This document shows, piece after piece, positions 14,599 through 20,431 of a stretch of DNA of 64,000 nucleotides. A model generated the notes under the pieces. That model was not told where the DNA came from. It ran no database searches and worked only from the letters and a program-made list of their open reading frames with translations. The position numbers and the translations under genes are program-made. The stretch lies in the NCBI RefSeq assembly GCF_007671725.1, contig NZ_VCNM01000002.1:248001-312000 (forward strand), read 5' to 3'. Position 1 is the first letter of the stretch; each line of letters opens with the position of its first letter. This DNA comes from Halorubrum depositum (GTDB lineage Archaea; Halobacteriota; Halobacteria; Halobacteriales; Haloferacaceae).

Positions 14599-14657
14599 TC
14601 GGCGCGAGCGGGAGCGACAATTGTTTATGAATAAACGTGGGCGGTGGCGCGCGCCGC

Positions 14658-14730
14658 CGAGCGGGCCTTCGGCCCGCGAGTAGTGAGGGACCGGAGGTCC
14701 CTCTGACAGCCGGCGGCAAAGCCGCCGGCG
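14658..14730. repeat. Cluster of three perfect hairpins
   Basis: Three adjacent inverted repeats: GCGGGCC-TTC-GGCCCGC at 14661-14677, GAGGGACC-GGA-GGTCCCTC at 14685-14703, and GCCGGCGGC-AAA-GCCGCCGGC at 14709-14729. Stems are 7, 8 and 9 bp without mismatch and all loops are three bases. A purine-rich tail (about 14730-14765) follows. The style resembles intergenic repeat elements I recall from Halorubrum genomes, but I cannot confirm copy number. Confidence 0.75.
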
Positions 14731-14968
14731 AGAGCGCGTGCGACGAGGCTGGAGAGGCGTGAGGTGCGGTTGATGTGACCCCGTTTGACCTGTGTCAGAA
14801 ACTGACTGCCGAATACAGAGCGAGAAGCCAACACGACGTTATCGTTTCTTTCACTCAGTATCAGTCGTTCAATGTCAGCGCTAATCTGTCGCTATTGATT
14901 AAATATATGATTGGTACTGTGAATAACATTCATCATCTTGCAGGTACTATAGCATGTGGGTAAATGTC

Positions 14969-15100
14969 ATGTCTACCAGACGCAAAGTTCCCGTGGGAGC
15001 GACGCCTAAATCGAAGTACGCAACTTGGGACGACCACCGAGAGTCCCTTCACCGTGAGGCCAGGACAAACCGCCGGAAGCGACAGGTCCGACCGAAGTAA
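14969..15100 (+). CDS. Possible 43-residue basic protein
   Basis: A 43-codon frame from ATG to TAA inside the AT-rich island. The product is strongly basic (begins MSTRRKVPVGATPKSKYATW, ends RRKRQVRPK), opposite to the acidic haloarchaeal proteome. No family is recognised and no clear ribosome site is visible. It may be a relic, or a small nucleic-acid-binding protein; random occurrence is quite possible. Confidence 0.2.
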   Translation: MSTRRKVPVGATPKSKYATWDDHRESLHREARTNRRKRQVRPK

Positions 15101-15273
15101 CTCATCAGCGATCCATTTTTGAAAAATTCGTATCTCCCCGATTGAGTGAGCCGGCACCTCCAATTCGAACTCAACCCTGTGCCAGATACGCCCGCCGTGT
15201 TCAGCACAACTGTAGAAACCTATCATCCTTCGAGGAGTTCAACAGAGTCAATAACGTACAGCCGGGCGGCAGC

Positions 15274-15313
15274 GAGGCGCGAAGCGCCTCTGGCGGCCGG
15301 CGGGTGCGCCGGC
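15274..15313. repeat. Pair of perfect hairpins closing the AT-rich island
   Basis: GAGGCGC-GAA-GCGCCTC at 15274-15290 and GCCGGCG-GGTG-CGCCGGC at 15296-15313. They are the same kind of short-loop GC hairpin as the cluster at 14658-14730 and sit at the opposite edge of the AT-rich segment. Confidence 0.7.
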
Positions 15314-15417
15314 GGCGACTTAGGGCTTTGAAACCGTTCGATGCGTCAACGATTTACAACTAAATGACCGTGAACCGCTTTTGGTTATGAGAAATCAACG
15401 ATCCCGCCGACGCGTTC

Positions 15418-16928: not shown

Positions 16929-17564
16929 ATGGCGGACGAGCGCGCCGCCGGCGACGACCTACCCGAAGCCGAGACGGCTCACCGACACGGCGAACCGGAC
17001 GCCTTCGGGTCGCCGTACCGCCTGCTCTCGACCGCGGTGACACCGCGCCCCATCGCGTGGGTCTCTTCGCGGGGCTCGGCCGGCGAGAACCTCGCGCCGT
17101 ACAGCTTCTTCAACACCGTCGCGATCGACCCGCCGGTCGTCGCCTTCTCGCCGGTGGCGACCGCGGCGGACCCGAAGGACACGCTCGCGAACGCTCTCGA
17201 GACGGAGGCGTTCGTCGTCAACGTCGTCACCGAGGACGTCGTCGAGGCGATGAACGCGTCGAGCGCGACGCTCGACGCGGGCGAGAGCGAGTTCGACCAC
17301 GTCGGGATCGACCGCGCGCCGTCGGCGCGGGTCGACGCGCCGCGGGTGGCCGCGGCGGCCGTGAGCCTCGAGTGCGAGCTGTACGACGCGGTCGAGATCG
17401 GCACCTCGACGCTGGTGCTCGGCGAGGTCGTGTACGCCCACGTCGCCGAAGACGCGCTGCTGGACGGGGAGATAGACATGGACCGACTCGACACGGTCGG
17501 CCGGCTCGCCGGCGGCTGGTACGCGAGCACCGACGACCGGTTCGAGCTGGAGCGCCCGCCGTAG
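16929..17564 (+). CDS. Flavin reductase (DIM6/NTAB) family protein
   Basis: 211-residue FMN-binding split-barrel protein of the flavin reductase-like family. Typical segments: SPYRLLSTAVTPRPIAWVSSRG, NLAPYSFFNTVAIDPPVVAFSP and KDTLANALETEAFVVNVVT. Such proteins reduce FMN with NAD(P)H or reduce quinones, nitro or azo compounds. Its ATG lies immediately after the stop of the VOC gene (TGA-ATG), indicating tight coupling. Together with HxlR, DoxX and VOC it suggests reduction or detoxification of quinone-like electrophiles. The first 25 residues are an acidic extension. Confidence 0.85.
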   Translation: MADERAAGDDLPEAETAHRHGEPDAFGSPYRLLSTAVTPRPIAWVSSRGSAGENLAPYSFFNTVAIDPPVVAFSPVATAADPKDTLANALETEAFVVNVVTEDVVEAMNASSATLDAGESEFDHVGIDRAPSARVDAPRVAAAAVSLECELYDAVEIGTSTLVLGEVVYAHVAEDALLDGEIDMDRLDTVGRLAGGWYASTDDRFELERPP

Positions 17565-19354: not shown

Positions 19355-20431
19355 ATGACCGAGCCGCAATCCGAACCGAGTCCGGAGCCGGAGCCGTTCC
19401 GGTACGACGCCGTCGTCGATCCGGGCGAGAAGCGCCGCGTCCGGTACGAGGTGGGCGAGACGTACCTCGGCGACCCGATCGAGATGCCGGTGACGATAAT
19501 CAACGGCGAGGGCGGCGGGCCGGCCCTCTTCCTGAGCGCGGGGATCCACGGCGACGAGCTCAACGGCGTCAAGGTGGTCCAGGAGGTCGCCGACCGCTAC
19601 GAGCCCGCCGACCTCCACGGCACGCTCGTCTGCCTCCACGTGTGCAACGTCCCCGCCTACGAGGCGCAGCGGCGCGACACCCCGATCTACGACCAGGACA
19701 TGAATCGCTCGTTCCCGGGGAACGAGCGCTCGAACACCACCGAGCGCATGGCGAACCGGATCTACCGGCGGTTCGTCTCCCAGTGCGACCTCGGGCTCGA
19801 CTTCCACACCTCCACCCGCAACCGCACGACCATCTACCACGCCCGGGCCGACCTCGAAAATCCCGACGTCAGGCGTCTCGCGCGGGCGTTCGCGACGAAC
19901 GTGGTGCTGTACGGCAGCGGCGATCAGGGGTCGCTGCGCTCGACGGCGACCGCCGACGGGATCCCGACGGTGACCGTCGAGATGGGGCGCGCCCACCGCT
20001 TCCAGCCCGTGCTCGTCGAGAAGGCGCTGGAGGGCGTCGAGAGCGTCATGGCCGAGTACGAGCTCCTCCCGAACGAGCCGGTCCACTGGCCGGGCTGGTT
20101 CCAGTCCACCTCGGTCGACAGCACGAAACGCTGGCTGCGCGCCGACACCGGCGGCCTCGTGGAGATGGAGTGGGGGCCGTACCCGCTCGTCTACGAGGGC
20201 GAGACGATCTGCACGATCACGAACCACTTCAAGACGGAGGAGCACGCGGTCGAGGCCCCCTTCGACGGGCTGATCCTCGGCTCGCTGGAGAACCCGGTCG
20301 CCGCGCCGGGGCACCCGCTCTGTCACGTCGTCCGGCTCGACGGCGAGACGCGCGCGGAGATCGAACGCGAGATCCGGGCCGGCGACTTCGACGGCTACCG
20401 GGCCCACGGCGACGCGTGGGCCGACGACTGA
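19355..20431 (+). CDS. Succinylglutamate desuccinylase/aspartoacylase family hydrolase
   Basis: 358-residue zinc carboxypeptidase-like amidohydrolase (AstE/AspA family). Metal ligands are visible: His and Glu of SAGIHGDELNG (near 66 and 69) and the His of LGLDFHTST (near 151). DQDMNRSFPGNE is the conserved substrate-binding region (Asn-Arg pair), and PTVTVEMG near 210 carries the catalytic Glu. The C-terminal part (EAPFDGLILGSLENPVAAPGHPLCHVV) is the beta domain. Probable deacylation of an N-acyl amino acid; substrate unknown. Start at MTEPQ because TTAT at 19327-19330 lies about 27 bases upstream; an ATG 18 bases earlier is in frame. Confidence 0.85.
   Translation: MTEPQSEPSPEPEPFRYDAVVDPGEKRRVRYEVGETYLGDPIEMPVTIINGEGGGPALFLSAGIHGDELNGVKVVQEVADRYEPADLHGTLVCLHVCNVPAYEAQRRDTPIYDQDMNRSFPGNERSNTTERMANRIYRRFVSQCDLGLDFHTSTRNRTTIYHARADLENPDVRRLARAFATNVVLYGSGDQGSLRSTATADGIPTVTVEMGRAHRFQPVLVEKALEGVESVMAEYELLPNEPVHWPGWFQSTSVDSTKRWLRADTGGLVEMEWGPYPLVYEGETICTITNHFKTEEHAVEAPFDGLILGSLENPVAAPGHPLCHVVRLDGETRAEIEREIRAGDFDGYRAHGDAWADD

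What the first reader, a model, noticed from the sequence alone, without database searches (positions are those of the whole stretch)
14658..14765. Three perfect short-loop hairpins with purine-rich tail
Stems of 7, 8 and 9 bp with three-base loops and no mismatch lie within 70 bases, followed by a G/A-rich tail. Nothing else in the window is as palindromic. The style resembles dispersed intergenic repeats I recall from Halorubrum, possibly a mobile or RNA-level element without a described function.
Basis: partly seen in the sequence, partly recalled or inferred. Interest (0 to 1): 0.5.

Follow-up and report, generated by a model that had tools for sequence, protein, structure and literature searches.

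The report
Haloarchaeal multi-copy RNA-like hairpin element
The three hairpins are a damaged copy of a roughly 300-base, intricately folded sequence found dozens of times in salt-loving archaeal genomes; it stays at fixed places while its hairpins are swapped like cassettes, which suggests an undescribed family of structured RNAs.

Summary
The three perfect hairpins are real (7, 8 and 9 bp, 3-nt loops). They are not a unit of their own. Hairpin 1 belongs to arm P1 of a dispersed element of about 250-300 nt; hairpins 2 and 3 are a ~50-nt two-hairpin module inserted in that arm. The window's genome holds 76 copies of the element's core against 1 for the reversed control. All 52 genomes of the genus have it (9-196 copies). 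A covariance model finds it in 183 of 391 genomes of the class, 43 of 86 genera, and nowhere outside the order in a phylum sample. Rfam has no match. Its helices covary strongly. 35 of 41 examined copies sit at the orthologous place in a sister species, so they are not recently mobile. Yet hairpin P3 was replaced as a block in 23 of 26 of these pairs, usually by an allele also present at another locus. The window copy is decayed: P3 is lost, an invariant G is mutated, and a ~490-bp insertion splits it. Best reading: an undescribed class-wide structured-RNA family with hairpin cassettes exchanged between fixed loci. Transcription and function are not shown.

The parts
14624..14635 (+). degenerate TATA-like box (TTTATGAATAAA) upstream of the element
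   Evidence: Sequence. TATA-like motif at -22..-8 before GCGGTGG in 151 of 233 copies against 1 of 233 at -122..-108.
14641..14654 (+). conserved start GCGGTGGCGCGCGC with the 5' strand of arm P1 (14647-14654)
   Evidence: Sequence; pairs with 14734-14741 (one G.U); P1 aligned and paired.
14661..14677 (+). hairpin 1 (7 bp): hairpin hp1 that caps arm P1
   Evidence: hp1 covaries (helix 1, 6 of 6 pairs with two-sided changes).
14682..14731 (+). two-hairpin module A (hairpins 2 and 3, 14685-14703 and 14709-14729) inserted within arm P1
   Evidence: Same module at the same place in the ortholog L172. 19 matches with at most 1 mismatch in the genome, 17 of them at element copies (compared by hand).
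14734..14741 (+). 3' strand of arm P1 (GCGCGTGC); linker GAGGGA and hairpin P3, which follow in intact copies, are missing here
   Evidence: Comparison with the copies.
14745..14764 (+). conserved core GAGGCTGGAGAGGCGTGAGG (G to A at an invariant G)
   Evidence: TGGGGAGG is invariant in all 50 aligned copies.
14773..15258 (.). AT-rich insertion of about 490 bp that splits the element; holds a 48-aa ORF (14954-15100)
   Evidence: full-length match only in this genome among 52 genus genomes, single copy; no Pfam match for the ORF.
15259..15270 (+). remnant of the rod base of the 3' domain
   Evidence: Comparison with L171, L179 and L042.
15271..15319 (+). second two-hairpin module A (hairpins 15274-15290 and 15296-15313)
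   Evidence: (C2:263288, one mismatch).
15320..15339 (+). degenerate tail box TTAGGGCTTTGAAACCGTTC (intact copies: CTGGGGCTTTGGAGGTGTTC)

Best explanation
The finding is a decayed copy of an undescribed, class-wide family of structured RNA-like elements of Halobacteria. Intact copies run: GCGGTGGCG - arm P1 (stem capped by hairpin hp1) - GAGGGA - hairpin P3 - invariant G-rich core - GGGACTCAAAGGGGCA - long rod built of short helices separated by purine-rich internal loops - TGGGGCTTTG, whose CTTTG pairs with the CAAAG before the rod. Most likely the G-rich strand is transcribed and folds into this scaffold, and the invariant single-stranded G-rich framework is what a partner recognises. Shown: family, copy number, fold and covariation, fixed loci, whole-hairpin exchange between loci on a constant framework, decay of the window copy. 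Inferred: transcription, RNA-level action, ectopic gene conversion as the exchange mechanism, and a binding partner. The window copy is probably not functional.
For: Copies. Breadth. No Rfam match to the window or six intact copies. Structure: 96.6% of cells paired against 84.5% shuffled, 27 of 38 pairs with two-sided changes, covariation 0.343 against 0.129, 0 of 500 shuffles, slid versions 28-43% paired. Strand: among isolated non-Watson-Crick pairs in the rod, G.U 30 against A.C 10, p = 0.002; in hp1 21 against 7. Between genera the basal pair changes from CAAAG/CTTTG to GAAAG/CTTTC. Fixed loci: 35 of 41. Cassette exchange: P3 replaced in 23 of 26 orthologous pairs, 19 of 23 with an allele also at another locus of the two genomes; similarity of orthologous P3 (mean ratio 0.645) hardly exceeds that of random pairs (0.604).
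Against: No transcript data were available. The TATA-like box is precisely placed, but the usual 25-27 nt spacing (recalled) would put the start inside P1, so it may not be the element's promoter. P3 shows no strand asymmetry (G.U 9, A.C 7). Because hairpins are exchanged as blocks, covariation counts are not independent events. Copies avoid divergent promoters without a clear orientation preference between tandem genes, as neutral repeats would. L123 carries its rod interior inverted. Predicted G-quadruplex formation was rare.
Confidence: 0.58

Rival explanations
1. A non-autonomous mobile element (MITE- or PATE-like, IS200/IS605-derived) that spread by transposition; hairpins are transposase signals and the RNA fold is incidental.
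For: Dispersed, intergenic, many copies; near-terminal palindromes and precise insertion of module A without target duplication, read by eye at L010, L012 and L172; PATEs and SMRs of this style are described in Haloquadratum (PMC3119063, passages).
Against: 35 of 41 copies are at orthologous places in a sister species. No Y1 transposase in the genome (the control search rang in 5 of 14 genomes). No terminal inverted repeats were noticed in the alignments (no dedicated test). Module B lies at one fixed place, 94-99 bp 3' of a core, in 7 of 7 cases. The same framework is conserved in seven families.
Confidence: 0.15
2. A DNA-level palindromic element (cruciform, single-strand hairpin or protein-binding array, for example for chromosome organisation or recombination) with no RNA function; hairpins stay perfect through gene conversion or template switching.
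For: Near-perfect Watson-Crick stems: 47 of 145 rods 17 of 17, P3 101 of 204 seven of seven. Block exchange of hairpins. No strand asymmetry in P3. TATA-like boxes flank both ends.
Against: G.U exceeds A.C three to one in rod and hp1, which favours pairing on one strand. Invariant unpaired G-rich stretches and a GGG/GGG internal loop at the rod base.
Confidence: 0.22
3. Ordinary GC-rich intergenic debris: the hairpins are chance palindromes.
For: Single 7-8 bp hairpins are frequent in this window (50 against 35 expected).
Confidence: 0.02

Closest known systems
BOX elements of Streptococcus pneumoniae (PMC3049150; passages read)
   Same: Dispersed intergenic repeats, modular, predicted stem-loops when transcribed, low current mobility.
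   Different: No sequence relation was looked for. Here the framework spans a whole archaeal order, and hairpins are exchanged at loci that are fixed between species.
PATEs and small mobile repeats of Haloquadratum (PMC3119063; passages read)
   Same: Haloarchaeal, non-coding, palindromic; a very short terminal-only 52-bp form resembles module A in size; SMR-A elements insert into palindromes of other elements.
   Different: PATEs show strain-specific insertions and are tied to IS605-type transposons. Here loci are fixed and the genome has no Y1 transposase. Sequence identity to PATEs was not tested.
STAR elements of staphylococci (PMC3532100; abstract and outline read)
   Same: Interspersed intergenic repeats with internal variable parts.
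   Different: The reverse pattern: STAR loci differ between species while sequences at a locus are stable; here loci are stable and the internal hairpins turn over.
ERIC/IRU and REP/BIME repeats of enterobacteria (recalled; named in search listings only)
   Same: Intergenic palindromic repeats that fold when transcribed.
   Different: Simple palindromes; no multi-arm scaffold with an invariant unpaired framework (recalled).

Membership tests
Rfam 15 RNA families | score to any of 4227 covariance models | tested here: not met
   No match at E up to 1 in the window stretch or up to 2 in six intact copies.
MITE | recent mobility shown by strain- or species-specific insertions | tested here: not met
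   35 of 41 copies orthologous in G139; six without a match were not examined for empty sites.
MITE | terminal inverted repeats and target-site duplication | tested here: inconclusive
   None noticed by eye. TATA-like boxes flank both ends; the boundary was not defined from empty sites.
PATE / IS200-IS605-derived element | near-terminal palindromes similar to those of an IS605-type transposon | not tested
   Sequence comparison with IS605 ends was not made.
PATE / IS200-IS605-derived element | no target duplication on insertion (module A) | tested here: met
   By eye: L010, L012 and L172 read as framework plus module with no base lost or duplicated.
PATE / IS200-IS605-derived element | a Y1 transposase to mobilise it | tested here: not met
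   PF01797: 0 matches in the genome.
structured non-coding RNA gene family | conserved secondary structure supported by covariation above controls | tested here: met
   searches support it, with no strand asymmetry for P3.
structured non-coding RNA gene family | transcription from a defined start | not testable with these tools
   No RNA data. TATA-like box at fixed distance, but its spacing places the start within P1.
structured non-coding RNA gene family | conserved position between species | tested here: met
   for the window locus.
BOX-like dispersed structured repeat | modular, intergenic, multi-copy, stem-loop forming | tested here: met

The most novel reading that the evidence does not exclude
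A new class-wide family of structured non-coding RNAs in Halobacteria, in up to nearly 200 copies per genome. Each copy is a fixed gene-like locus whose hairpin arms are exchanged as cassettes between copies on an invariant G-rich scaffold, so that the cell keeps a combinatorial repertoire of RNAs.
Probability: 0.45. Interest if true: 0.88.

Novelty: new variant of a known kind. Interest (0 to 1): 0.68.

Why it matters
Every sampled genome of the genus carries the element, some with nearly 200 copies, and it spans seven families of the order, yet Rfam has no model of it and nine searches of an open-licence paper library found no description. If it is RNA, it would be among the most abundant structured RNA families of haloarchaea and has an unstudied function. 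Loci that stay put while whole hairpins turn over as completely as unrelated copies give a direct way to study ectopic gene conversion, or a dedicated exchange process, in archaea. The covariance model makes annotation and testing possible in species that can be grown in the laboratory.

Tried and rejected
Chance hairpins: rejected. Rfam families: none. IS200/IS605 mobilisation in this genome: no Y1 transposase. Viral or plasmid origin: no match in phage records; 14 places in 11 haloarchaeal plasmid records, which looks like host-type intergenic DNA. Riboswitch or terminator of a neighbouring gene: no clear orientation preference between tandem genes (16 same/same against 10 opp/opp), only avoidance of divergent regions (22 convergent against 8 divergent, heuristic gene calls). 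G-quadruplex core: the energy model gives it in 6 of 30 full copies and 9 of 56 core segments, so dropped. The first P1 register of the consensus fold was shifted by two columns; P1 was left out of the pair count for that reason, as was a doubtful helix at columns 119-136. Model R1 was built without P3 pairs because MAFFT mis-registers the two P3 types. The P1 and rod parse is rough (some P1 segments misparsed, and its allele counts may hold one locus twice); the P3 figure rests on the stricter. A resemblance of GTGGGACTGAAAG to the 3' end of CRISPR repeats is recalled and was not followed.

Rows dropped before counts: one search kept 56 copies with all anchors and one search kept 50 of these by length (235-268 nt); alignment A1 includes L010, whose 5' part is misaligned, and L123 with an inverted rod interior. 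One search used 145 distinct rods of 198 boxes, 115 of them with at least 12 of 17 Watson-Crick pairs. One search counted 39 own copies (10 without an upstream and 11 without a downstream call) and 75 named copies (22 and 29). One search used 41 of 76 own copies, which were those that scored best against the window query, and 101 copies of G139. One search parsed P3 in 33 of 41 own and 90 of 101 G139 copies, which left 26 of 35 orthologous pairs. In one search only 9 candidates per genome were scored, so its copy numbers are lower bounds.

Full report
OBSERVATION. The three perfect hairpins are at 14661-14677, 14685-14703 and 14709-14729. The stretch folds with z = -3.0 against shuffles. Single hairpins of this size are common in the window (50 against a mean of 35.25 in 20 Markov shuffles, with longer ones at 17255 and 19706), but a triple within 75 nt occurs once against 0 of 20 shuffles.

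WHAT IT BELONGS TO. A search of the window's own genome (3.18 Mb, 5 contigs) with 136 bases gave 54 matches. I fetched 39 stretches and found a common anatomy: a TATA-like box, GCGGTGGCGCG, arm P1 with hairpin hp1, GCGAGGGA, hairpin P3, the core GAGGCTGGGGAGGCGTGAGG, a G-rich spacer, GGGACTCAAAGGGGCAG, a long rod, and CTGGGGCTTTGGAGGTGTTC. With up to 3 mismatches the core occurs 76 times, the reversed control once. That the window is Halorubrum is inferred from this.

BREADTH. In 170 genomes of the family the core is in all 52 of the genus (9 to 196 copies; control 0 to 6) and in several other genera (127, 49 and 20 copies in the best). Sequences from seven other genera keep the framework. A covariance model (R1; 108 positions, 30 sequences) scores the window copy at 41 bits, E = 4e-7. 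It finds matches at E <= 1e-4 in 183 of 391 genomes of the class, 43 of 86 genera, in families f1, f3, f4, f6, f7, f8 and f10 (nine candidates per genome scored). Twelve genomes from six other families hold 3 to 43 matches each at E <= 1e-3, and their sequences show the same order of parts. In a phylum sample 22 of 294 genomes match, all of them within the order; how many of the 294 lie outside the order is not listed. Plasmid records of Haloarcula, Halobaculum, Halorussus, Natrinema, Haloterrigena, Natronococcus and others hold fragments, mostly under no annotated feature; phage records none. Infernal E-values from the short calibration are rough.

STRUCTURE. Fifty intact copies were aligned (A1): 46 columns are invariant, mostly in the unpaired framework (TGGGGAGG, CAAA.GGGCA, TGGGGCT). 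RNAalifold finds 48 pairs, 29 with two-sided changes. For the 38 pairs that I trust, 96.6% of cells pair (shuffled 84.5%), 27 pairs have two-sided changes and the covariation score is 0.343 against 0.129, with 0 of 500 shuffles as high; sliding the partner by 1 to 3 columns drops pairing to 28-43%. In the first 17 bp of the rod, isolated non-Watson-Crick pairs are G.U 30 and A.C 10 (p = 0.002), which favours pairing in the G-rich strand as RNA; 47 of 145 distinct rods are perfect. hp1 gives 21 against 7, but P3 gives 9 against 7. At the rod base the pair next to AAAG/CTTT is C-G in Halorubrum (CAAAG/CTTTG) and G-C in other genera (GAAAG/CTTTC), a compensatory change. Rfam has nothing.

FIXED LOCI, MOVING HAIRPINS. 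At the window locus, 30 orthologous regions of the genus were read, one of them (L168) the window's own. By the core motif the element lies between the same two genes in the same orientation in 13 of the other 29; four more have it with extra DNA between the genes, L185 has a variant copy, and the rest lack it. In the sister genome G139, 35 of 41 own copies have a copy at the orthologous place and orientation, 34 with both flanks, flank identity 78-97% and mostly above 88%. Nevertheless the hairpins differ: of 26 pairs in which P3 could be parsed, 1 is identical, 2 are similar and 23 are replaced; in 19 of the 23 at least one of the two alleles occurs at another locus of these two genomes, and 17 have well-paired stems on both sides. 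Mean similarity of orthologous P3 is 0.645 against 0.604 for random pairs. Single loci show the modules moving independently: L040 against its ortholog L270 has a near-identical rod but a different hp1 and P3; L034 against L320 has identical P3 and nearly identical rod but a different hp1. I infer ectopic gene conversion on the constant framework; no step of it was observed.

MODULES. Hairpins 2 and 3 of the finding are module A, two hairpins in about 50 nt. Pattern CTCTGGCAGCCGGCG has 15 exact and 4 one-mismatch matches in the genome; the two-mismatch matches are chance, as the control shows. Compared by hand, 17 of the 19 lie in or beside element copies. It occurs in both orientations and at several places of the element, and reads as a precise insertion without duplication in L010, L012 and L172. 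An ortholog with it at the same place as in the window is L172 of G134. Module B has 7 copies, all 94-99 bp 3' of a core on the same strand.

THE WINDOW COPY. It has P1, hp1 and module A, but the GAGGGA linker and P3 are gone, one invariant G of the core is an A, and the sequence departs from the family at 14773. The 3' part (rod base, a second module A, degenerate tail box) follows at 15259-15339. The 490 bp between are AT-rich, match in full length only this genome among 52 of the genus, and encode at most a 48-aa ORF without Pfam match. Neighbouring genes are ordinary: phosphoglucomutase/phosphomannomutase, acylphosphatase, an unassigned ORF, an HxlR regulator, DoxX and a glyoxalase-type protein.

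HOW IT MAY WORK. Best reading: a folded RNA made from the G-rich strand, with an invariant framework for a partner and exchangeable arms. For: covariation, strand bias, conserved unpaired positions, fixed loci. Against: no transcript data; a TATA-like box precisely placed (151 of 233 copies against 1 of 233 upstream), but at a spacing that would start transcription inside P1 (spacing recalled); no strand bias in P3; a neutral-looking genomic placement. TATA-like boxes also follow the tail box (133 of 260), and the tail box repeats at about 55 bp in 100 of 260 copies, so the boxes may be part of the element rather than a promoter. A DNA-level palindromic element is the main rival.

KNOWN SYSTEMS. 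Closest in style are BOX repeats (PMC3049150, passages), PATEs and SMRs of Haloquadratum (PMC3119063, passages) and, by contrast, STAR elements (PMC3532100, abstract and outline). The Haloferax volcanii genome paper (PMC2841640, passages) names no such element in what I read. Nine paper searches showed no description in the listings; the library holds only open-licence papers, so an older or subscription description cannot be excluded.

Noticed in passing
window 14773-15258: AT-rich insertion of about 490 bp with a 48-aa ORF (14954-15100), unique to this genome in full length; its last ~70 bases resemble short dispersed stretches in other genomes of the genus.
   Followed up: partly
L123:4802-5043: The interior of the rod is inverted in place relative to the other aligned copies, as expected from recombination between the two arms of its stem.
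   Followed up: no
L028, L034, L197 and others, 3' of the tail box: The tail box with a TATA-like box repeats in tandem with a period of about 55 bp in 100 of 260 copies.
   Followed up: partly
L017, L023, L029: A third two-hairpin module (around TCGTCATCACGAGACG) sits in the rod of these copies, again without a target duplication by eye.
   Followed up: no
element 3' box in other genera, e.g. L199, L244: GTGGGACTGAAAG resembles, from memory, the 3' end of haloarchaeal CRISPR repeats; not tested.
   Followed up: no
window 17255-17279 and 19706-19728: Longer perfect hairpins (11 and 10 bp, loops 3) than those of the finding.
   Followed up: no
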